Assembly: GCA_002305045.1 (NCBI GenBank)
Contig: DBPX01000008.1
Span: forward strand, 1-22,672
Origin: Ruminococcus sp. UBA1409
GTDB lineage: Bacteria; Bacillota; Clostridia; Oscillospirales; Ruminococcaceae
Length of the DNA stretch: 22,672 nt
Reading direction: 5' to 3'
Numbering within the stretch: the first letter of the stretch is position 1; the number at the start of each line of letters is the position of its first letter. The notes under the pieces are model-generated. The model did no database searches and had not been told where the DNA came from. It was given only the letters and a program-made list of their open reading frames with translations. The position numbers and the translations under genes were made by a program. Below, in pieces: positions 12,634-22,672 of this stretch.

Positions 12634-13500
12634 ATGAAAAAAATGCTAAAATCGCTCTTGACAGACTACCTGATAATCTCGCTCGGCTCTGCGATATACG
12701 CAGTCGCCATCAGCCTGTTTCTAGACCCCAACGGCATCATCCCGGGAGGCTTCACCGGGCTTGCCATGATAGTCGGGCTGTTTATCCCCGGGGTCAAGAC
12801 GGGAACAATCGTGTTCTTTTTAAACATACCCATCATCGTAGTGGGGATTGTGGTCTTTGGGTTAAAATTTTTAAGCTCGACGATATACTCCGTTGTCCTC
12901 TCCTCGCTTATAATGAATCTTTTGGCTCCTCTAGGACCTCTTACCAGGGACCCTCTTTTATGCTGTGTAGCGGGAGGCTGTCTTATGGCTATAGGTCTTG
13001 AGATGGTGCTAATGCGTGGAGCCACCACCGGCGGAACGGACATCATCGTAAAGCTTTTAAGAAAAAAGATACGCTCGGTCTCTGCGGGGACGCTGTTTAT
13101 CGCCACCGACGGCCTTGTCATCCTCTTTGCGGCTATAGCCTCGGGAAACATAGACTCCGGGCTTTACGCCGCCCTTTGCACAATTATATCCTCTGTCGTG
13201 ATGGACTATATTCTCAACGGCAGAAGCGAGGCAAAGATGCTCCTTGTGGTGAGCGACAGCTTCGAGGAGATAGCCTCCCGGCTTATGGTAGAGCTTGACG
13301 CCGGCGTCACCCTGCTGGAGGGCATGGGAGGCTACTCGGGGGCGCAGAAAAGGGTGCTCCTGTGCGTTGTGAAAAAGCAGTCGGTATCCAAGGCTCTAAG
13401 GATTATAAAGCAGCTCGACGACCGCTCCTTCGCTATCATCACGACCGCCGACGAGGTGTTCGGCGAGGGCTACAAGCACCACGGTGCGGAGAGCTTCTGA
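12634..13500 (+). CDS. YitT-family membrane protein with C-terminal DUF2179 domain
   Basis: 288 aa. The YitT membrane domain covers about 12-195 with roughly five hydrophobic helices; the conserved NGIIPGGFTGLAM (33-45) and RGATTGGTDII (128-138) motifs define the family. The cytoplasmic C-terminal DUF2179 domain (about 200-280) includes GVTLLEGMGGYSG and ends FGEGYKHHG. The family is widespread in Firmicutes; its transport or sensing role is not settled. The ATG at 12634 has GAGGTG 7 nt upstream. It is divergent from the CotH gene, monocistronic, and followed by a terminator-like hairpin at 13531-13556. Confidence 0.92.
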   Translation: MKKMLKSLLTDYLIISLGSAIYAVAISLFLDPNGIIPGGFTGLAMIVGLFIPGVKTGTIVFFLNIPIIVVGIVVFGLKFLSSTIYSVVLSSLIMNLLAPLGPLTRDPLLCCVAGGCLMAIGLEMVLMRGATTGGTDIIVKLLRKKIRSVSAGTLFIATDGLVILFAAIASGNIDSGLYAALCTIISSVVMDYILNGRSEAKMLLVVSDSFEEIASRLMVELDAGVTLLEGMGGYSGAQKRVLLCVVKKQSVSKALRIIKQLDDRSFAIITTADEVFGEGYKHHGAESF

Positions 13501-13530
13501 CAGACCAGGCTTGCCGTGGGTTGACAGCAG

Positions 13531-13564
13531 CGCTCCCTGGGAATTTCCGGGGAGCGTTCATCTT
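13531..13564 (+). terminator. Terminator hairpin after the YitT gene
   Basis: Stem CGCTCCC (13531-13537) with GGGAGCG (13550-13556), inner loop containing GGGAATTTCC, then the weakly T-rich TTCATCTT. About 30 nt after the stop. A near-identical hairpin in inverted orientation is at 13865-13888. Confidence 0.6.
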
Positions 13565-13589
13565 GCCTAAAAGCGACATCCTCGCAGGC

Positions 13590-13750
13590 TGCGCAAAGTG
13601 AGCCGCCACGGCTTTAGCCGTGGCGGATTGATTGCCGGCTGATGTTAAAAAAGGCCTCCCGAAATTTTCAAGGAGGCGTACATTTGCAGGCTCTTATGAA
13701 ATTTTAGCGGCAATCACTCGGTCAGCATCGCTGACAGCTCACTTTGCGTA
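13590..13750 (-). repeat. Four-way-junction inverted-repeat element, copy A
   Basis: 161 bp between the convergent YitT and FN3 genes. The terminal repeats GCAAAGTGAGC (13593-13603) and GCTCACTTTGC (13737-13747) pair perfectly. Inside are a long hairpin CCGCCACGGC-loop-GCCGTGGCGG on the left and a short GTCAGC-ATC-GCTGAC hairpin on the right, plus a central stem GATTGCCG (13630-13637)/CGGCAATC (13708-13715). The central loop holds GCCTCC/GGAGGC. Against copies B and C the hairpin order is reversed, so this copy lies in the opposite orientation. Read on the minus strand, the central hairpin is followed by six Ts, making it terminator-like. Origin and function unknown. Confidence 0.85.
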
Positions 13751-13861
13751 GGCGGGGTCCCCCTCAAGCTGCGTAGGGGGGCAAAATTCGCTGGTAAGCG
13801 AATTTATACCTGCCAGGCAATTTCACTGCGAGGCAATATCTCTTGCCATTAGGCAAATAAC

Positions 13862-13889
13862 AAAGCTCCCCGGAAAATTCCAGGGAGCC
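13862..13889 (-). terminator. Terminator hairpin after the FN3 gene
   Basis: On the minus strand, GGCTCCC...GGGGAGC (13865-13888) with an AATTTT-containing loop, followed by the short T-rich TTTGTT. About 30 nt after the FN3 stop. It closely resembles the YitT terminator in mirror orientation. Confidence 0.6.
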
Positions 13890-13919
13890 TTATCTTTTGC
13901 TTATCTGCCCTTGAGCCTA

Positions 13920-16589
13920 TTATCTTACTGTAACAGTAAGAGGAGCACAGGCGGAGAGGCACTCGCTCAGAGTTCCGTAGGACTTGTAGTCGCTCCTTAC
14001 GATTCTGACCTTGTAGGTCTGACCGGAGGTGAAGCTCTTAGCGCTGGAGCCGTTTCCGAATCTTGTCAGGGTAGCTCTTGTTCCGTCATAGGTGCCGCAG
14101 TACTTGTAGGTGCTGCTGGTTCCCTCGGCTATATAGATTCTGTAGCCGGGTGCGCCGATGTTGTTCCAGGATACTACTACCTGACCCCTCTGGGTGCTGG
14201 TTACGGAGGTGAGGGAGGCATAGTTCTCGTCAAGAGAAACATCGCTGTCGCTTCCTACCGGGTCGGGTGCTCTTACGGTTGTCGAGGTGGTGGAGGGAGC
14301 AATCTTGAGGACGCCGGACTCATAGCCGCCGTCGGTGACAATCTTGAACTCGTACTCTATGCCGTTAGTTAGACCGTTGACATTTACAGCGGACTTGGTA
14401 AGACGCTGGTTGACCTTGAGCCATGTCGAGCTGGTAGCCCTTCTGTAGTAGAGGGTGTAGTAGTCGGCATTGTCAGCCTTATCCCAGGAAAGAGTTACCT
14501 TCTTGTTGCCGGATACAGCCTTGAAGTTGGTGGGATACCTGTTGTCGCTGGAGCTTCCAGAATCGGTGTCGGGAGTGGAGCCGGCGACATTGTAAAGGTG
14601 GCCTATCTCATACATCCTGTTGCTGTTGGTGATGGCTATAACGGTTACCTGGAAGTCCCTGCCGAGTCCCATGGGAACATCGTAGGTGGTGCCGATTACC
14701 ATATCCTCAAAGGAGGTCTCGGCGCCGAGAGGACCGTACCAAATCATATAGCCGTAAGCGTCGGGCGCCTTCTGCCAGGAGATGGTGGTGGTTGTGGCGT
14801 TCTTGTAGGAGTAGGTCAGGTTCTCAACCTCGGTCTTGGTTATGGTGGAGCTGGAGCCGGAGCTTGAGGCCCTGCCGGTTACATTGGCATAAGCAACCAG
14901 GTTGTTGTTCATGTCGATAACTCTTACATAGTAGCTCTTGGTTATCGGAATGTTGAGGGTTGCGGTTGTCGCCTGAGCGGTGTAGTTGAAGGTTGAGCCG
15001 TCAACGGTGTACTGGATGTTGTACAGATAGCTTCCAGAGGAGTTCCATCTGATTACAGCGTAGCTGTCGTAAGAGGTTACCATGCAGTTGTAGCCGCTGG
15101 TGACATTGGTGCCGGAGGTGCCGATGCTGGAGCCGCTTCCGCCTGTCTGGGTTATGGTAGAGGGAGTTACTACAGCTCCGCCTACATATCCGATGGCGCC
15201 GTTGTAGCTGTATGCCTGAACGGATACCTGCCAGGTGTCGGTAGAGGCGTAGTTAAGGCTTATATAGGGGTAGGTTATATTGACGGTGCTGGAGCTGCCG
15301 TTAGACTTGGAGTGAGTAACGACATAGTAAGCTGCGCCGCTTACAGGCTGCCAGGTTACGGTTGCATTTGTTGTGCCCCTTGTTATATTAAGAGTGCCTG
15401 TTCCTACTGTGCCTGAGGTTGAGCCGGGGGACGAGGATGTCGCATATGCTGCAAGATATGCCCTTGCAAAGACAGTGGTGCTGCCGAAGGACATTACCTC
15501 GAAGGTCCAGCTCTGGGTGTAGTCAAGGTTAAGAGAACAGCTGGTGCCTGTTCTGATAATAGTATTACTCTGGCCGAGGGTGTTGTAGTATCTTATGGTG
15601 TAATAGCCCATAGAGCTTGTTCCCTGCCACGAGAGGGTGACGGTGGAAGCGGTAGAGTAGGGTCTGGAGGCTATCATGTTAGAGGTCGCCGAGCCGGAGC
15701 CGTAGGGAGAAACCATAACGGAGCCGATGACCTGCGAGCTGTTTGCCAGGAATACATAGTAGGTCATTCCGCTGGGAAGGGTTGTAGTGTACTGAGTCAA
15801 GCCTGAAACGGATACCCAGCTGGCGTTGCTGTAGCTGCTGCTGGTGGAGATTCCAAGACGGGTAGCTCCCAGGGAGGCAGCCCATGTGAAGTGTACATAG
15901 TTGCCGTTTCTGGTGTAGCTGATGTTGGTTCCGCTTACGCTTCCGCCAGTGCTGCCGGAGCCGGTGTTAGTCCAGCTGATGAGCGGGCTGGCAGTGTGGT
16001 TGCTCTTCGTACCGCCGTATACCCTTACGGAAAGGAGGTTGGAAAGAGCCACATTGATGATTGTAGAGTTTGTAGGCACGCTGTCAACAGTGCCGGAAGC
16101 ATTTTGTCCGTTGTTGCTGTAGGTGTACTCAACATAGTATTTGTCATGGCCTGCCTGTGGGTTCCAGGAAAGGGTGGTGGAGGTTGCGGTTGACCCGACA
16201 GCTTTAAAGCCGTTGGTGCCGGTTACCGTGGTGGAAATAAACTGTGAGTTGGATGTGAGTATGCCGACTCTACTTCCGCTTGCAGAGGTTCTTGCTGTAA
16301 CCTCTGCAGTATAGTTTCCTCCGACAGTAGCGGTATAGCTCGCCGTGCACTTATCGGGTATATTTGTGTCAGGGGTCACCGTAACTGCGGTCTGATGAAC
16401 TCGGCTGCCATCCTTAAGGAATAATACCTCATAGTAGGTCGCACCCGTTACCGGCTCCCAGCTAAGCGTCAAGGTCTTGGTACCGGTATTTAAATTCAGG
16501 GTAGCAGTACCATCCGCCGACGCCGGGAGCACAAACATGGTCAAGGCTAGAACAGCCGCCAGGACCATAGCGAATAATTTTTTTGTCAT
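13920..16589 (-). CDS. Secreted protein of about nine fibronectin type III domains
   Basis: 889 aa. Signal peptide about 1-26 (KKLFAMVLAAVLALTMF...ASA). The rest is a string of FN3-like beta-sandwich domains recognisable by the recurring hydrophobic-x-W-x(5-8)-Y-x-V/I pattern: TLSWEPVTGATYYEV, TLSWNPQAGHDKYYVEY, FTWAASLGATRLGIS, TLSWQGTSSMGYYTIRY, VTWQPVSGAAYYVV, IRWNSSGSYLYNIQY, ISWQKAPDAYGYMIWY, LSWDKADNADYYTLYY and VSWNNIGAPGYRIYI. Gly/Ser/Thr-rich linkers separate them. No catalytic domain, LPXTG motif, lipobox or SLH domain was seen, so it is presumably released or held non-covalently. ATG 16589 has AAGGAG 9 nt upstream. Role unknown; adhesion or matrix scaffolding is an inference. Confidence 0.88.
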   Translation of the reverse strand: MTKKLFAMVLAAVLALTMFVLPASADGTATLNLNTGTKTLTLSWEPVTGATYYEVLFLKDGSRVHQTAVTVTPDTNIPDKCTASYTATVGGNYTAEVTARTSASGSRVGILTSNSQFISTTVTGTNGFKAVGSTATSTTLSWNPQAGHDKYYVEYTYSNNGQNASGTVDSVPTNSTIINVALSNLLSVRVYGGTKSNHTASPLISWTNTGSGSTGGSVSGTNISYTRNGNYVHFTWAASLGATRLGISTSSSYSNASWVSVSGLTQYTTTLPSGMTYYVFLANSSQVIGSVMVSPYGSGSATSNMIASRPYSTASTVTLSWQGTSSMGYYTIRYYNTLGQSNTIIRTGTSCSLNLDYTQSWTFEVMSFGSTTVFARAYLAAYATSSSPGSTSGTVGTGTLNITRGTTNATVTWQPVSGAAYYVVTHSKSNGSSSTVNITYPYISLNYASTDTWQVSVQAYSYNGAIGYVGGAVVTPSTITQTGGSGSSIGTSGTNVTSGYNCMVTSYDSYAVIRWNSSGSYLYNIQYTVDGSTFNYTAQATTATLNIPITKSYYVRVIDMNNNLVAYANVTGRASSSGSSSTITKTEVENLTYSYKNATTTTISWQKAPDAYGYMIWYGPLGAETSFEDMVIGTTYDVPMGLGRDFQVTVIAITNSNRMYEIGHLYNVAGSTPDTDSGSSSDNRYPTNFKAVSGNKKVTLSWDKADNADYYTLYYRRATSSTWLKVNQRLTKSAVNVNGLTNGIEYEFKIVTDGGYESGVLKIAPSTTSTTVRAPDPVGSDSDVSLDENYASLTSVTSTQRGQVVVSWNNIGAPGYRIYIAEGTSSTYKYCGTYDGTRATLTRFGNGSSAKSFTSGQTYKVRIVRSDYKSYGTLSECLSACAPLTVTVR

Positions 16590-16621
16590 GGCATGACACT
16601 CCTTTTCTCGTTACTGAGTAT

Positions 16622-16650
16622 ATTATAACACTTTAATAATCTCTTGTAAA
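16622..16650 (-). promoter_or_regulatory. Promoter of the FN3 gene
   Basis: Minus strand: -35 TTTACA (16645-16650), 17-bp spacer, -10 TATAAT (16622-16627), about 30 nt before the ATG. Confidence 0.8.
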
Positions 16651-16699
16651 TAGATTGATAATTATTTTTTCAAAAAATTAATCAATTATTAATCTCCCA

Positions 16700-16728
16700 T
16701 TGAAATCCAACGCAAAAAGTGTTACACT
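16700..16728 (+). promoter_or_regulatory. Promoter of galactose mutarotase
   Basis: -35 TTGAAA (16700-16705), 17-bp spacer, -10 TACACT (16723-16728), about 60 nt before the GTG start at 16796. It is divergent from the FN3 promoter with about 50 bp between the -35 boxes. Confidence 0.7.
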
Positions 16729-16795
16729 GAATATACAACTTGGATGTGTGAAAAATTGCAGGACCAAAAAATATTTTTTTGAAAGGAGAAGAACT

Positions 16796-17857
16796 GTGAC
16801 TAGGATTGAAAGAAGATGCTTCGGGCATCTTGCAACCGGCGAGGAGGTCGGTCTTTACACCCTGACCAACCAAAGCGGAGCCTTTGTCGAGATAATCGAG
16901 CTGGGAGGAGCTATCCGCTCCATTGTCGTCCCCGACAAAAACGGCAGGCTTACCGATGTCGCCCTCGGCTACGACTCCGTAGAGGACTATGAGAAGCAGG
17001 ACAAGTATGTCGGTGCGCTTATCGGAAGGCACGGCAACCGTCTAGAGGACGCCAAGGTCAGGATTAAAAAAAGGGTTTATCACCTTGCCAAAAACGACGG
17101 CAGGAACAACCTCCACGGCGGAAATCAGGGCTTTGACAAGAAGCTCTGGCGCAGCGAGATAGACGGCGAGAAGCTCAGGCTTTACTACACCTCGCCTGAC
17201 ATGGAGGAGGGCTTCCCGGGTACGCTTGAGGTATGCGTTACCTACTCCTTTACCGACGACAACGCCCTTGTCATCGACTACAAGGCTAAAAGCGACGCCG
17301 ACACCGTCTGCAATCTGACTAATCACTGCTACTTCAACCTGGAGGGTCAGGGCAGCGGAAAGATAATCTGGCACTCCCTAAAAATCAACGCCAGCCACTT
17401 CACCGTCGGAAACTCTGAGTGCCTGCCCACCGGCTATGTAGCCAAGGTCGAGGGCACGCCGCTAGACTTCACAAGCTTTAAGACCATAGCCGACAGGATT
17501 TACGACAAGCATGAGCAGCTCGTCTTTGCCGGCGGCTACGACCACAACTACTGTCCCGACGGAAGCGGCTTCAGGGAGATGGCGGTCCTAAAGGCTCTAA
17601 AGAGCGGAATTGTCATGAAGGTATATTCCGACCTTCCCGGAATCCAGTTCTACTCCGGCAACTCCCTGGACGGCAAGCCTCCCTACGGAAAGGGCGGCGT
17701 CCCGATAGAAAAGAGAACGGGGCTCTGCCTTGAAACTCAGTTCTATCCCAACGCCATGAAGTACGACAACTTTGAAAAGCCGTATCTTGCCGCCGGCGAG
17801 GAGTACAGGCATATAACCGTCTACAGCTTCGGCGTGGAACAGCCCTACGAAAGGTGA
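16796..17857 (+). CDS. galM: Galactose mutarotase (aldose 1-epimerase)
   Basis: 353 aa, typical GalM length. It interconverts alpha and beta anomers of galactose and related sugars in the cytoplasm. Substrate-binding GRHGNRLEDA (78-87) and NNLHGG (104-109) are followed by the catalytic acid His in NLTNHCYFNL (His-177), the sugar-binding Asp in GYDHNYC (Asp-249) and the catalytic base Glu in GLCLETQFYPNA (Glu-313). The frame is open 32 codons upstream to an ATG at 16700, but that ATG lies in the -35 box; the GTG at 16796 has AAAGGAG 7 nt upstream and begins the family's usual N-terminus. No Leloir-pathway genes are adjacent. The stop is followed directly by hairpin repeats and, about 380 nt on, a T-run terminator. 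Confidence 0.94.
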   Translation: MTRIERRCFGHLATGEEVGLYTLTNQSGAFVEIIELGGAIRSIVVPDKNGRLTDVALGYDSVEDYEKQDKYVGALIGRHGNRLEDAKVRIKKRVYHLAKNDGRNNLHGGNQGFDKKLWRSEIDGEKLRLYYTSPDMEEGFPGTLEVCVTYSFTDDNALVIDYKAKSDADTVCNLTNHCYFNLEGQGSGKIIWHSLKINASHFTVGNSECLPTGYVAKVEGTPLDFTSFKTIADRIYDKHEQLVFAGGYDHNYCPDGSGFREMAVLKALKSGIVMKVYSDLPGIQFYSGNSLDGKPPYGKGGVPIEKRTGLCLETQFYPNAMKYDNFEKPYLAAGEEYRHITVYSFGVEQPYER

Positions 17858-17944
17858 GGCTCGCTTCACAGTGAAATTTGTCCTGCGGCAGTGAAATTTG
17901 CCGCAGGCGAAGCCCCCTGCCCTAGCTTGATAAGGAGGCGGGCT

Positions 17945-18107
17945 TACGCAAAGTGAGCTGTCAGCTTAGCTGACCGATTGATTGCCGGCTGGGTCTTGCA
18001 AAAGCCTGACGCCCATTCGCCTCCTAGGATACAGCAGGAGGCTGTCCTGCCTGCTAACCGGCAATCACTCCGCCACGGCTGACGACGTGGCGGGCTCACT
18101 TTGCGTA
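17945..18107 (+). repeat. Four-way-junction inverted-repeat element, copy B
   Basis: 163 bp with perfect 14-bp terminal inverted repeats TACGCAAAGTGAGC (17945-17958) and GCTCACTTTGCGTA (18094-18107). Left hairpin GTCAGC-TTA-GCTGAC, right hairpin CCGCCACG-loop-CGTGGCGG, central stem GATTGCCGG (17980-17988)/CCGGCAATC (18058-18066) with an inner GCCTCCT/AGGAGGC hairpin. Same orientation as copy C. It is identical to C over 50 bp at 17917-17966, which includes 28 bp outside the terminal repeat. Confidence 0.88.
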
Positions 18108-18236
18108 TCCGGGGCGGTTTAGCTTTGTAGGATGGAGGGGAATCCGCCTGACGGCAATGAAGCTGCTTCACAGCTAAGCTTCGACGCCGTGAAGCTCTTT
18201 GCAGCGATATTCGCCTGATGGCAGATGAAAATATTT

Positions 18237-18272
18237 GGGACGCTCTCTTTACCCAAGGGAGCGCCCTTTTTT
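18237..18272 (+). terminator. Terminator between galM and the beta-helix gene
   Basis: GGG (18237-18239) plus CGCTC (18241-18245), with a bulged A, pair with GAGCG (18259-18263) plus CCC (18264-18266), followed by six Ts (18267-18272) on the plus strand. On the minus strand it abuts the stop of the beta-helix gene and is followed by AAATATTTT, so it may work in both directions, more weakly on that side. Confidence 0.8.
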
Positions 18273-18273
18273 G

Positions 18274-21147
18274 CTATTCCACCGTCACCCTGGCGTCAGA
18301 CTGGGAGAGGATATTTCCCTCGCCGTCTACAACCGTGAGAATATATATACCCTTATTCTCGGGGGCGGTGATGCCCTCAGCCAAGCCGGAGGTCCTTGAC
18401 TGCGAGGGGTCTGTCTCGTCAAACGCCGAGAGTCCCGACGGCGCAAGCCAGATTACCAAATCGGAGTCGTTTAGCATCCTTGCAAAGTTCACCGCTCCTC
18501 CGGGAGCTACCGTTATATCCTCCGCCAAAAGCTTATTCGCCTCGGTGACATGGGTCGTGAAGCTTATGGACTCCGAGCCGTCTGAGGTCTCGAGCGTCCA
18601 CTCGCCAGCCTCGCTGATGCTGACTACCGACTCCGCCGGAGTGCCGTTGAGGACTGCGCCTACGCCCTCCCCTACGGTGATTTCAAGCGGCTTTTTCTCG
18701 CTGACGCTGTAGCTTCCGCCGTCGGATATGCTAAAGGCCGAATCCCTCTCGCCGGCATAGACGGTAAACTCGCCCTCGCCGGAGCAGCTTCCGTCGGCGT
18801 AGACTATATAAAGCTTGTACTCGCCGGGAGTATCGGGGACCTTTATTGACTTCTCGTTTCCGGCGGCGCAGGTCATGGTAGGACCTAGCGCAAGCTCCTT
18901 GGTACCAGAAGGCGCCAGCCAGACGGTATCCTCCGGGTCAAGAAGCCCTCTTCTCGGGACATCCTCGCCGCAGGTTATGCTTATGTTTGCCGCAAGCTCG
19001 TAGTAATCGTCCGGCATGACATCCTTTGAAACCATGTGGACATATTCGTCCTCTAGACCTGAGTAAAGAACGACCTCGTAGCCCTCTAGCGGCCAGATAT
19101 AGTCGCTGTTTACATACTGCTCGACGGTGCAGTTTGGCGCTGTGGTCTCGGAGCGGTCGGTGTTCGAGAAGCCGTTTGTGACTATGCAGTCGTGCTTTCT
19201 CATCCAGTCGTTAAGCTCGTAGACATTCCTTATTATGTTGGTGACGACATTGTGGTCGAACTTAATGAAGGCGCTGCCCTCGTCCGGGTGGAAGCCGTTT
19301 ACCATCCTGGAGCCGTTTGCCTGAGTGGGGGCACGGAAGCAGTTTATATAGTTGTAGCTCATCTCGCTGGACTCGCTCCAATCCTCGTTGCCCTGCTGTC
19401 CCAGAGTGTAGATGCCTCCCGCGTCCTGAAGCACCGAGCATATCTCCTCGACACGGTTGTAGTTGACATGGTTAAATCTCGAGGTGGTCGTCGGCTGACC
19501 GGGAAGCTGGGACTCCTCGGTGCCGTCAAAGTTGCACCAGCCCCAGCCTATGCTCATTCCGCTGTAGGAGCATTTGTAGACAAAGTTGTGCTCCACGGTA
19601 AGATTATAGGTGAAAAATGTGGTTATCGGGGAGTTTCCCGGGAAGAAATAGCAGTTTTCCAAAAGATAGTTGTTCTTTATGGTGATATTCTTGGGGACAG
19701 CCTCTGTGCCCTTGGGGAACTTCTCCTTGTCAGGTCCTGCCGAGGTCTCGCTCACCCTCTGCTCTTCGGTGTCGTTTTCGTAGATGTGCTGCAGATGTCC
19801 GACGGTTATTCCTCCTCCGCCGGTATAGGCTATGAGGTTGCCGATTATATCACAGTCGTAGACATCGTTCTCAAGATGGATTCCAAGATATCCTGTGGAC
19901 TCGAAGCCTCCGTTTATAAAGTCGACATCGTGTGCGCTCGAGACATGGACCGCCGCCGGTGCGACATCAAAGGACCTGTACAAATCGTTGTGCCAGAACA
20001 GGTCGGAGAACTTGGTGTGAATGGTACAGCCCTGGGTCGTGGCGTTGCCGTAGGAGCCGTCAAGCTCGTAAAGATTCCAGTCGGAATAGGCAAATGTAAG
20101 CCCGTCGAAGATGATATGCTCGGCGTACTTCTTCCCCGGCTCGCTTCCTGAGACCTCCACAAGCTTTTCAAGCCTCGGTATTACTACCTCCGCCGTGGCT
20201 AGGTCCTCTCCCTCTCTTGGGATGTAGTACAGCGTCGAGCCTGCCTGGTCGAAGTAGAACTCGCCCTCCTCCTCAAGCCACTCGAACACATTTATAATGT
20301 CGTTTTTGGCTGTCGGATTATAGCCGGTGTTCCAGCCTAAATTCTGTGCGACTGCGGCGTAGGGCATCTGAAGCTCCACCCTTATGTCCCCGCTGTCGGT
20401 GAGCCTTAGGCTGTCCGCACAGACGGTAGCCTTCACCCATGTCGAGCCGGACTCAAGCTCGATGTTTCTAGGATTTTTTGTATTCTCGGACAGCCCGAGC
20501 GTCCCGGGGAGGACAACCGCAGACTTTATGCCGTCCTGCGAAATCCACGCCCATTCCGCCTGCCCCGCCGTGACAGAATAGTAGCCAAGCGCAGCCACGG
20601 GGTCGGCTGACCGCCTCGTCATTGCGGCACGGGTGCCGTTTACATATATAGCACGGAGCTTTGCATCCCGGTTAAGAGTCGCCTTATAGGCTACAAGACC
20701 GTCGCTGAGCCAGTCGACCTCGTCTGCAACCTCCCACTCGCCCTCGAAGATATCCCCTCCGCTTATAACAGGCTCGGCTCCGGGTGCGGCACGGTAGATG
20801 ACCCTTGAGGTCTCGGTGCCGGAGTCCTCCTCGTCAAAGACAAGGGTGCTTTCGAGCTGGTAAAACCCGTCCGCTATGAGGACAACGATGTCCCCTCCCT
20901 TTTTGGACATATCCCTGACATGCTCCTTAGCTCTGCCTATCGTGGCATAGGGGCTTTCCTGCGAGCCGTCGCCGTCCGAGTCGCTTCCCTCCGGCGAGAC
21001 ATAAACATACCTCTCGGGGAGGTTCTCCCGGTCGGAATCGGCGCTCGAGCATCCGGCAAGAGCCGTAAAAAGCATCAGCGCCGCTAAAAGCAGTGCTCCC
21101 AGTTTGAAAAATAGCCTTCTTTCGGCATGGCAGTTGACTCTATTCAT
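18274..21147 (-). CDS. Large lipoprotein with right-handed parallel beta-helix domain
   Basis: 957 aa from ATG 21147, which has AAAGGAG 7 nt upstream; the open frame reaches 21219 but lacks a ribosome site there. The signal peptide ends in the lipobox L-A-G-C, lipidated Cys at residue 33. YVYVSPEGSDSDGDG...SPYATIGRAKEHVR just after it is the opening typical of DUF1565-like/pectate-lyase-like beta-helix proteins. The middle carries helix rungs such as HIIFDGLTFAYSDW, VDFINGGFESTGYLGIHLENDVYDCDIIGN, NITIKNNYLLENCYF and NLTVEHNFVYKCSYSG, with Asn/His-rich turns. The C-terminal ~250 residues look like beta-sandwich modules (PGEYKLYIVYADGS, AGEWTLETSDGS). Such proteins are often surface glycoside hydrolases or polysaccharide lyases; no catalytic residues can be assigned here, so activity is unproven. 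Confidence 0.85.
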   Translation of the reverse strand: MNRVNCHAERRLFFKLGALLLAALMLFTALAGCSSADSDRENLPERYVYVSPEGSDSDGDGSQESPYATIGRAKEHVRDMSKKGGDIVVLIADGFYQLESTLVFDEEDSGTETSRVIYRAAPGAEPVISGGDIFEGEWEVADEVDWLSDGLVAYKATLNRDAKLRAIYVNGTRAAMTRRSADPVAALGYYSVTAGQAEWAWISQDGIKSAVVLPGTLGLSENTKNPRNIELESGSTWVKATVCADSLRLTDSGDIRVELQMPYAAVAQNLGWNTGYNPTAKNDIINVFEWLEEEGEFYFDQAGSTLYYIPREGEDLATAEVVIPRLEKLVEVSGSEPGKKYAEHIIFDGLTFAYSDWNLYELDGSYGNATTQGCTIHTKFSDLFWHNDLYRSFDVAPAAVHVSSAHDVDFINGGFESTGYLGIHLENDVYDCDIIGNLIAYTGGGGITVGHLQHIYENDTEEQRVSETSAGPDKEKFPKGTEAVPKNITIKNNYLLENCYFFPGNSPITTFFTYNLTVEHNFVYKCSYSGMSIGWGWCNFDGTEESQLPGQPTTTSRFNHVNYNRVEEICSVLQDAGGIYTLGQQGNEDWSESSEMSYNYINCFRAPTQANGSRMVNGFHPDEGSAFIKFDHNVVTNIIRNVYELNDWMRKHDCIVTNGFSNTDRSETTAPNCTVEQYVNSDYIWPLEGYEVVLYSGLEDEYVHMVSKDVMPDDYYELAANISITCGEDVPRRGLLDPEDTVWLAPSGTKELALGPTMTCAAGNEKSIKVPDTPGEYKLYIVYADGSCSGEGEFTVYAGERDSAFSISDGGSYSVSEKKPLEITVGEGVGAVLNGTPAESVVSISEAGEWTLETSDGSESISFTTHVTEANKLLAEDITVAPGGAVNFARMLNDSDLVIWLAPSGLSAFDETDPSQSRTSGLAEGITAPENKGIYILTVVDGEGNILSQSDARVTVE

Positions 21148-21209
21148 TCTTCCACTCCTTTGATTTTGCTGTGATTTTTGCTGGTGAGGCACAGTCCGCC
21201 TCCCAGACG

Positions 21210-21238
21210 ATTGTATCACTTAGAAAGCTTATTTGCAA
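21210..21238 (-). promoter_or_regulatory. Promoter of the beta-helix lipoprotein gene
   Basis: Minus strand: -35 TTGCAA (21233-21238), 17-bp spacer, -10 TACAAT (21210-21215), leader about 55-60 nt. Confidence 0.75.
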
Positions 21239-21378
21239 TAGAATCTTACAATATATCATTAGCTTCTTTGCTTTAATCAGTCTTTTTGCGCTCCGAGACG
21301 GAAAAGGCACTCCTTGCGGCAGGTGAGGCTGCCTGACGGCAGCGATACCTCTGCCCTAGCTTGATAAGGAGGCGGGCT

Positions 21379-21540
21379 TACGCAAAGTGAGCTGTCAGCT
21401 ATGCTGACCGATTGATTGCCGGCTAGGTCTTGCAAGAGCCTGACGCCCATGCACCTCCTAAGATACAGCAGGAGGCTGTTTTACCCGCTAACCGGCAATC
21501 CATCCGCCACGGCTGACGCCGTGGCGGCTCACTTTGCATG
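21379..21540 (+). repeat. Four-way-junction inverted-repeat element, copy C
   Basis: 162 bp; left terminal repeat TACGCAAAGTGAGC (21379-21392), right GCTCACTTTGC (21527-21537) followed by ATG instead of GTA, so the outermost bases have drifted. Left hairpin GTCAGC-TAT-GCTGAC, right hairpin CCGCCACGGC-TGAC-GCCGTGGCGG (fully paired), central GATTGCCGG/CCGGCAATC, inner CCTCCT/AGGAGG. Identical to copy B over 21351-21400, which starts 28 bp outside the terminal repeat. Confidence 0.88.
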
Positions 21541-21664: not shown

Positions 21665-21768
21665 GTGGAAGGGGTGGACACTTTAGATACCTTTTCATCC
21701 CTGATTATCCCTCGCAAACACATAACAGCTTGAGCTGTATCAGAGCTCTCCATCCATTTAAGATATAT

Positions 21769-21813
21769 AAAGAAAACGTACGGTTTAAGCTTTGTTTAAA
21801 CTGTACGTTTTGT
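21769..21813 (-). terminator. AT-rich palindromic terminator after the GNAT gene
   Basis: A 29-bp palindrome at 21778-21806: GTACGGTTTAAG and TTTAAACTGTAC with two G-T-type mismatches, flanked by GAAAAC/GTTTTG. On the minus strand it is followed by GTTTTCTTT. Its reverse complement matches the palindrome at 22561-22589 at 27 of 29 positions. Confidence 0.75.
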
Positions 21814-21897: not shown

Positions 21898-22488
21898 TCA
21901 CATTAATTCTTTTTTCATAATTATAGTCTCACCATGTTCTGATATTTTGCGGAATCCTGCTTTTTCATATAAACGGATAGGACCTGCACAGTCCCATTCA
22001 TATCTCTCGCTGCGTTTGACGGGAAACCCTACCACTGATTCATACTTGTTTGTCTTTGCATCAAAGATGACTTTATTTAAAAGAGCAGTGGCTATACCTT
22101 TACCTCTGTATTCAGGAGCTATTTCAAAGCAAACAACAGCAATTTCACGTTTGGGTATGGGAGAATAAAAAAGAACATCATAGTATGGTTCGCTTGGAAA
22201 GTTCGCTCTATCATTAGCATTGCACCAGCCAACAGATATGCCATCAACATACGCTAAATATCCACAAAGCGCACCAGTTTCAATTTGTTTCTTAGCTACA
22301 TTTTTACACAGCAAACCAGGATCAATACCGCGAGTATCCTCCATCAATTTTTCCCCTTGCTCTTTTGACAATTGATACATCTGACAATAACATCTGTAAG
22401 GAGAATTGTCAGTAAAAGCACGATTGTCAAAAAAATCAAAATAATCTGCTGATAGTTCCGCTGTAAGCTTTTTAATAGTTATTTCCAT
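21898..22488 (-). CDS. GNAT-family N-acetyltransferase
   Basis: 196 aa from ATG 22488. The acetyl-CoA-binding motif A is clear: FEIAPEYRGKGIATALLNKV (about 121-140), with motif B region IRLYEKAGFRKISEHG (171-186). Substrate unknown; members acetylate small molecules, antibiotics or proteins, and nothing here favours a resistance role. The ATG at 22488 has AGGGAG a short 4 nt upstream; an ATG at 22503 (201 aa) is possible but has no clear ribosome site. The gene is visibly AT-rich, with codons such as AAA, ATT, GAT and TTT, unlike its GC-richer neighbours, and it is bracketed by two nearly identical palindromes in inverted orientation next to tRNA-Tyr. Recent transfer is likely (inference). 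Confidence 0.88.
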   Translation of the reverse strand: MEITIKKLTAELSADYFDFFDNRAFTDNSPYRCYCQMYQLSKEQGEKLMEDTRGIDPGLLCKNVAKKQIETGALCGYLAYVDGISVGWCNANDRANFPSEPYYDVLFYSPIPKREIAVVCFEIAPEYRGKGIATALLNKVIFDAKTNKYESVVGFPVKRSERYEWDCAGPIRLYEKAGFRKISEHGETIIMKKELM

Positions 22489-22555
22489 GACACTCCCTAC
22501 CATTCCATTTCATACAATATACATAATTTCTATCATAATTATATCATACAAAATG

Positions 22556-22593
22556 AAAAAGTACAGTTTAAACAAAGTTTAAACTGTACTTTT
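22556..22593 (-). terminator. Palindromic terminator of tRNA-Tyr
   Basis: A perfect palindrome at 22561-22589, GTACAGTTTAAAC and GTTTAAACTGTAC around AAA, lies between AAAAA and TTTTT runs, so it can terminate in both directions. It begins 4 nt after the tRNA CCA end. The inverted near-copy lies at 21778-21806. Confidence 0.85.
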
Positions 22594-22672
22594 TGGTGGG
22601 AGAGGATGGATTCGGACCATCGAAGCTAAATAGCAACAGATTTACAGTCTGCCCCCTTTGGCCACTCGGGAA
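22594..22672 (-). tRNA. tRNA-Tyr (GTA), 5' acceptor strand outside the window
   Basis: Read on the minus strand: CCA encoded at 22594-22596, acceptor CTCTCCC, T-arm GATGG/CCATC with loop TCCGAAT, a long class II variable arm (GTTGCTATTTAGCTTC), and an anticodon stem-loop AGACTGTAAATCT with anticodon GTA (22643-22645). Only the ~7-nt 5' acceptor strand is missing. It precedes the GNAT cassette in transcription order. Confidence 0.92.

What the first reader, a model, noticed from the sequence alone, without database searches (positions are those of the whole stretch)
13590..21540. Three-copy ~162-bp element with a four-way-junction architecture
Copies A (13590-13750), B (17945-18107) and C (21379-21540) share terminal inverted repeats GCAAAGTGAGC/GCTCACTTTGC, a short and a long side hairpin, and a central stem ending in a GCCTCC/GGAGGC hairpin. 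Stems are kept while loops differ (short-hairpin loops TTA, TAT and GAT in the B orientation; the long hairpin is closed by TGAC, TAAA or a mismatched GCTGACGA). Copy A is inverted, with the side hairpins swapped accordingly. All lie in intergenic gaps and encode nothing. This fits either a MITE-like mobile element moved by an unlinked transposase or a structured RNA family. I do not recognise it as a described family.
Basis: partly seen in the sequence, partly recalled or inferred. Interest (0 to 1): 0.82.

Follow-up and report, generated by a model that had tools for sequence, protein, structure and literature searches.

The report
Palindromic repeats tied to nuclease elements
A 160-bp DNA repeat that can fold into a four-armed shape occurs about 25 times in this bacterium, and in related bacteria the same folded ends surround a small nuclease gene, so the repeats look like gene-less remnants of an unusual kind of mobile element.

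Summary
A, B and C belong to a family of about 25 copies in the host genome sharing a four-way-junction fold: 98.2% of stem cells paired, 12 pairs changed on both sides, 0/500 shuffles as good. No Rfam family fits. A model built only from the host's copies matches 41 of 198 genomes searched, own included.

In relatives, the same ends also enclose a DUF559 gene, a nuclease of the Vsr/EDxHD homing-endonuclease fold. The model matches 24 of 80 independent DUF559 loci and 0 of 24 distant ones. Of 77 DUF559 elements with arms, 11 abut direct repeats of 22 bp up to about 150 bp; in tandem gaps DUF559 faces the same way as both neighbours in 20 of 22. I read the window copies as gene-less derivatives of this element.

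Not shown: that DUF559 moves anything. No DUF559 was found in the 88.5%-complete host genome. Non-coding copies lack such flank repeats. Six of the 11 repeats lie in tandem arrays. Some non-coding copies ride inside another repeat.

The parts
13590..13750 (-). copy A of the four-way-junction element
   Evidence: R1 match 167.1 bits
13593..13603 (.). copy A, terminal arm GCAAAGTGAGC (partner 13737-13747)
   Evidence: sequence, exact-end pair
13737..13747 (.). copy A, terminal arm GCTCACTTTGC
   Evidence: sequence, exact-end pair
13603..13626 (-). copy A, long side hairpin
   Evidence: repeat family D3; helix 4 of the pair count
13721..13735 (-). copy A, short side hairpin GTCAGC-loop-GCTGAC
   Evidence: sequence; helix 2
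17945..18107 (+). copy B of the element
   Evidence: R1 match 167.8 bits
17914..17944 (+). left outer arm of copy B, shared with copy C (21348-21378)
   Evidence: direct repeat D1, 92% over 180 bp; shared with other copies
17960..17974 (+). copy B, short side hairpin
   Evidence: sequence; helix 2
17979..17986 (+). copy B, central stem left arm (partner 18060-18067)
   Evidence: helix 3
18019..18042 (+). copy B, central GCCTCC/GGAGGC hairpin; in several copies followed by a T run, so terminator-like (inference)
   Evidence: sequence
18060..18067 (+). copy B, central stem right arm
   Evidence: helix 3
18070..18093 (+). copy B, long side hairpin, with one mismatch
   Evidence: D3; helix 4
21379..21540 (+). 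copy C of the element
   Evidence: R1 match 173.7 bits
21348..21378 (+). left outer arm of copy C
   Evidence: D1
21394..21408 (+). copy C, short side hairpin
   Evidence: sequence; helix 2
21504..21527 (+). copy C, long side hairpin
   Evidence: D3; helix 4

Best explanation
A, B and C are gene-less (non-autonomous) members of a family of palindromic mobile elements. The full form, seen in related genomes, is about 420-460 bp: two inverted arms, two side hairpins and a central stem, with a DUF559 gene in the central loop whose likely ribosome site and last codons are part of the stem. Shown: the shared ends, the nuclease gene and its fold class, the position at gene 3' ends, and long direct repeats around some full elements. 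Inferred: the nuclease cuts or nicks the two target strands tens of bases apart near gene 3' ends, the element is joined there, and repair fills the gaps, leaving long direct repeats. Recombination between these repeats, or between the near-identical arms, then makes tandem arrays or collapses the element to one hairpin. Loss of the gene leaves short copies like those in the window, which now persist as diverged hairpins between genes, perhaps ending transcripts.
For: R1, built from host copies alone, matches 24 of 80 new DUF559 loci at E<=0.001 (in 11 of the 24 the match runs into the DUF559 match, in the others it lies 10-220 bp beside it) and 0 of 24 distant DUF559 loci. R1-positive and DUF559-positive genomes overlap in 26 (41 and 44 of 198; Fisher p 5e-11). 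20 of 29 DUF559 loci had an inverted repeat of score 13 or more (control 99th percentile 11, control maximum 15), and 44 of 94 in a second set. Model with pLDDT 88.7; nearest solved folds 3hrl and homing endonuclease I-Bth0305I, E<=0.001. Abutting direct repeats in 11 of 77 (score 20 or more; control maximum 8 in 229 mispaired flanks). Gaps: 25 convergent, 22 tandem, 4 divergent; 20 of 22 tandem co-oriented. Host copies: 11 convergent, 13 tandem, 1 divergent.
Against: No DUF559 was found in the host genome, 88.5% complete. Non-coding copies show no comparable flank repeats: relatives 2 of 39 above the control maximum, by one point and with 8-bp matches; host 0 of 21. 66 of 77 DUF559 elements lack repeats of that strength, and 6 of the 11 lie in arrays with a neighbouring element or hairpin, where duplication by recombination explains the repeats without insertion; the other 5 loci are 3 independent sites at most. 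Ends of a non-coding copy match the DUF559 element of the same genome best in only 4 of 16 genomes, one of these a tandem pair. Host copies in tandem gaps show no orientation bias: 7 to 6 (by hand). In one genome non-coding copies travel inside another repeat. 50 of 94 DUF559 loci in the second set had no arms at the threshold.
Confidence: 0.6

Rival explanations
1. A structured RNA family or 3'-end regulatory element: the repeats are transcribed at gene ends and kept for their fold (terminator, mRNA protection). Their spread is by recombination or by riding in other elements.
For: Strong compensated stems; 11 convergent against 1 divergent gap (p 0.006); in the long side hairpin (helix 4) 6 G-U cells and no A-C cell on the strand used; central hairpin followed by T runs in several copies.
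Against: No Rfam match. Copies sit in both orientations to their neighbours (7 to 6 in tandem gaps, by hand). The arms are themselves palindromic and the same ends hold a nuclease gene. Compensated stems also follow from DNA cruciforms, and the G-U count stands for only a few events.
Confidence: 0.2
2. Hitchhikers or terminators only: the hairpin ends are passive cargo or common terminators of this order, and DUF559 genes merely sit between them.
For: In G199 copies sit inside a larger repeat that I would call IS200-like (recalled, no call); two copies there have collapsed to a single hairpin. Many DUF559 loci lack arms.
Against: The DUF559 frame is built into the element: in the six full copies it ends in the central stem (QSLSQ.. 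C-termini) and begins a few bases inside it. R1 matches 24 of 80 against 0 of 24 distant DUF559 loci. 20 of 22 tandem gaps are co-oriented.
Confidence: 0.15
3. REP/BIME-type repeats moved by a RAYT (TnpA-REP) transposase.
For: Many palindromic intergenic copies; small hairpin arrays beside some copies.
Against: The unit is 160 bp with 11-14 bp inverted ends rather than 20-40 bp, and I see no GTAG or CGTC tag at a hairpin foot (by eye). RAYT genes were not searched for.
Confidence: 0.05

Closest known systems
Miniature inverted-repeat transposable elements (MITEs) of bacteria
   Same: Short, non-coding, multi-copy, intergenic, with inverted ends shared with a longer gene-carrying element.
   Different: The longer element carries a DUF559 nuclease, not a DDE or HUH transposase; ends fold into a four-way junction; no short fixed target duplication seen.
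EDxHD homing endonucleases (I-Bth0305I) in group I introns
   Same: Same fold class; a nuclease gene set in the loop of a structured element. Passages of PMC3943268 say that I-Bth0305I-type enzymes dimerise on a target of nearly 60 bp.
   Different: No intron, no Rfam intron match, multi-copy at many sites, direct repeats beside some copies.
Vsr / Vsr-like DUF559 endonucleases
   Same: PD-(D/E)XK superfamily; DUF559 is described as frequent in Vsr-like proteins (passages of PMC12907096); fold matches 1cw0 and 1vsr, weakly (E 0.05-0.08).
   Different: Here the gene lies inside a palindromic repeat. Distant DUF559 loci have no R1 match (0 of 24); 18 of 22 tested for flanking inverted repeats had none above background and 4 did.
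REP / BIME palindromic repeats
   Same: Intergenic palindromes in many copies.
   Different: Larger unit, defined four-way junction, different associated gene.

Membership tests
MITE | short non-coding repeat with terminal inverted repeats in many copies | tested here: met
   25 places, 13 with both exact ends, no spanning ORF in 20 of 25 copies and none for A, B, C; in the other 5 a chance-like frame of 261-705 nt overlaps, not followed up
MITE | ends shared with an autonomous element | tested here: met
   shared with DUF559-carrying elements in relatives; that these are autonomous is not shown
MITE | target-site duplication at insertion | tested here: not met
   host 0 of 21 and relatives 2 of 39 above the control maximum, by 8-bp matches; old age could hide it, and repeats under 8 bp were not looked for
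MITE | empty orthologous sites | tested here: inconclusive
   R1 finds nothing in 11 fetched loci of genus relatives, but only one genome is collinear at A, site B is fully covered in 4 of 6 and site C in none, and intergenic DNA is too diverged to align
DUF559-carrying palindromic element (this report) | DUF559 frame inside the central stem | tested here: not met
   absent from the window copies and not found in the host genome; hence 'gene-less derivative'
DUF559-carrying palindromic element (this report) | same arms, side hairpins and central stem | tested here: met
   R1 24 of 80 against 0 of 24; sequences
Rfam RNA family | match at the gathering score | tested here: not met
   window: only two tRNAs; 15 related loci: two tRNAs and a Gut-1 RNA outside the element
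REP/RAYT | 20-40 bp palindrome with GTAG or CGTC tag | tested here: not met
   by eye on the aligned copies; the tags are named in the abstract of PMC3733652 (listing)
REP/RAYT | RAYT transposase in the genome | not tested
   no search was left
IS200/IS605 derivative | IS200-type ends around the window copies | not tested
   seen by eye only in another genome

The most novel reading that the evidence does not exclude
DUF559 palindromic elements are a separate class of transposable element: one small Vsr/EDxHD-type nuclease and a cruciform-forming DNA (or its RNA) insert in the sense direction at gene 3' ends by cuts tens of bases apart, leaving direct repeats of variable length (22 bp to about 150 bp); the 160-bp window repeats are its gene-less derivatives.
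Probability: 0.33. Interest if true: 0.88.

Novelty: new variant of a known kind. Interest (0 to 1): 0.7.

Why it matters
If right, a very common 'unknown function' nuclease gene of gut Clostridia is the engine of a mobile element family, and a large class of unexplained hairpin repeats in these genomes gets an origin. Long, variable direct repeats that keep the 3' end of the target gene would be unusual for a bacterial element and would make a one-nuclease mechanism directly testable.

Tried and rejected
Rfam, no match to the element. blastn of copy B in 60 relatives found only the own genome and one weak 37-bp match, so a covariance model was needed. Viral contigs: pattern 0; DUF559 relatives in 26 loci, so phages are a minor carrier in that collection. 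Plasmids: 37 records, all under 60% identity; phages: 3 records. Host flank repeats: nothing beyond control except palindromic matches round copy A (34, inverted) and C16:9409, and one 22-bp match at C19:200369. The nearest named contig, L080, seemed to give a sister genome, but only that one contig of its genome matches the window region, so it may be misbinned. Among non-coding loci, L042 has a 47-bp, 88% repeat, but 18 and about 87 bp from the element; not counted. Same-genome matching of ends: 4 of 16. PADLOC: only partial matches to DpdF and a type II enzyme; NCBIfam: below cut-off. Literature: 'DUF559' 14 papers (listing, passages of two read); 'DUF559' + 'inverted repeat' 0; 'Vsr' + 'target site duplication' 4, none of whose titles concerns such elements; other searches. 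Preprint servers were not searched as such.

Rows dropped before counts: of the 100 loci only L063-L142 were scanned; one search entered 53 places and kept 50; one search entered 95 and tested 94; one search entered 39 and 21; entered 63, with 8 undetermined and 4 skipped for short flanks.
Full report
What is there. The three copies are real and at the stated places. Copy B has 27 blastn matches in the host genome, 25 distinct places, some of them partial; 13 copies keep both exact ends. Twenty-two copies, 19 from elsewhere in the genome, align well. Their stems hold: 98.2% of cells paired, 12 of 36 pairs with changes on both sides, no shuffle as good, and slid controls at 25.9-38.3%. The conserved part extends outward, mainly to the left. 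Copies sit at gene ends: 11 convergent, 13 tandem and 1 divergent gap by a crude ORF rule (11 against 1, p 0.006).

Relatives. blastn reaches almost nothing outside the host, but model R1, made from host copies only, matches 41 of 198 genomes searched, the own one included (at most 14 candidates scored per genome, so lower bounds). The wider family reads GGCTCCCTTGTGCAAAGGGAGC, short hairpin, TGAGGGATTG..CAATCCCTC, second hairpin, and the mirrored end.

The gene inside. I scanned 80 of those 100 loci: 84 matches, of which 19 are complete short elements, 6 are about 420 bp, 2 pair only with a distant unrelated end, and 57 have no right end by the strict rule, one of which (L090) is cut by a contig end. 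The six, and L090, have a frame of about 120 codons in the central loop. In the six it is PF04480, DUF559. Its start follows GGAGGG of the central stem by a few bases and its last codons (QSLSQ..) are the other stem arm. The model of the alignment is confident (pLDDT 88.7). Only three solved chains match at E<=0.001: the Neisseria protein 3hrl and two chains of homing endonuclease I-Bth0305I; Vsr follows at E 0.05-0.08. T21, E24, R41, Q42, D51, E62, D64, H68 and D77 are among the invariant residues of 31 sequences; that they form an active site is by analogy with Vsr.

Link between the two forms. 20 of 29 DUF559 loci of relatives have flanking inverted repeats at score 13 or more (random pairs: 99th percentile 11, maximum 15), and 44 of 94 in a second set. 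R1 matches 24 of 80 of the second set's fetched loci and 0 of 24 distant loci. Among distant DUF559 loci tested for inverted repeats, 4 of 22 had strong ones (the four best-scoring testable ones) and 18 had not. Genomes with R1 matches and with DUF559 overlap in 26, partly because R1 sees the ends of the DUF559 elements themselves. Ends match within a genome better than between genomes in only 4 of 16 cases.

Direct repeats. In L071 the last ~35 codons of an NAD synthetase gene stand on both sides of a DUF559 element, 104 bp at 99%; known NAD synthetase structures run through this part once, to the end. L132 has the same arrangement, 108-111 bp at 92%. Between the two loci the repeats, the gene and the element are all 77-79% alike, so one old insertion kept uniform by conversion, or two insertions, both fit. 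L167 has 56 bp at 98%, L169 and L170 (orthologous) 40 and 39 bp. With the rule that repeats abut the arms, 11 of 77 elements score 20 or more, while 229 mispaired flanks reach 8 at most. L171, L335, L341, L342, L365 and L407 stand next to another element or hairpin, so there the repeat may come from tandem duplication. The same test on non-coding copies finds nothing comparable.

Position. Full elements: 25 convergent, 22 tandem, 4 divergent, 8 undetermined, 4 skipped, of 63. In tandem gaps DUF559 faces as both neighbours do in 20 of 22 (p 1e-4). Host non-coding copies in tandem gaps: 7 to 6, no bias (by hand).

Loss and riding. In G199 the element sits inside a larger repeat (40 matches, some of them pieces). 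Two of its copies have only one hairpin left, one with the left-arm loop and one with the right-arm loop, as deletion between the two arms would give.

Orthologous places. In genus relatives at about 65-75% identity, R1 finds no copy in 11 fetched loci. Only G023 is collinear at A; the 3' side of gene 18274-21219 is covered far enough in 4 of 6; site C is not fully covered in any. This is presence against absence, not a base-exact empty site.

Mechanism. I take the window copies as gene-less derivatives of the DUF559 element. Shown: shared ends, gene, fold class, position, direct repeats at a minority of full elements. Inferred: that DUF559 makes the cuts, that the repeats are target duplications, and that the short form arose by loss of the gene. 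The host genome as held has no DUF559 match, so its copies are probably no longer moving.

Known or new. No paper found joins DUF559 with inverted repeats, within an open-licence library. The nearest kinds are MITEs and homing endonuclease elements; neither fits wholly.

Noticed in passing
window 21763-21812 and 22546-22595: Another ~50-bp palindromic repeat, 80% alike (90% as inverted arms of 39 bp), on both sides of the ORF 21898-22503.
   Followed up: no
window about 13800-13890 and 17850-17910; left flanks of other host copies: Arrays of small hairpins of the type GCCTGACGGC or TTCGCC..GGCGAA beside element copies.
   Followed up: no
window 13532-13558 and 13862-13888: Near-identical palindromic terminator on each side of copy A; it matches better inverted (34) than direct (24), so it is not clear evidence of a target duplication.
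   Followed up: partly
L196, L197, L198 against window 12634-17857 and L195: In G011, G021 and G012 the aldose-epimerase-like gene lies beside the first gene in the opposite direction; G023 keeps the window's order.
   Followed up: no
L108 and other loci of G199: The element rides inside a ~330-bp repeat that looks IS200-like (label recalled), with two collapsed single-hairpin copies.
   Followed up: partly
L027 (G000:C6:68252) and L024 (G000:C20:2864): Truncated copies: one has lost its interior, the other its last hairpin and end.
   Followed up: no
L335: A DUF559 element stands in line with single hairpins separated by the same spacer, as if one hairpin of an array had become a full element or the others had collapsed.
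   Followed up: no
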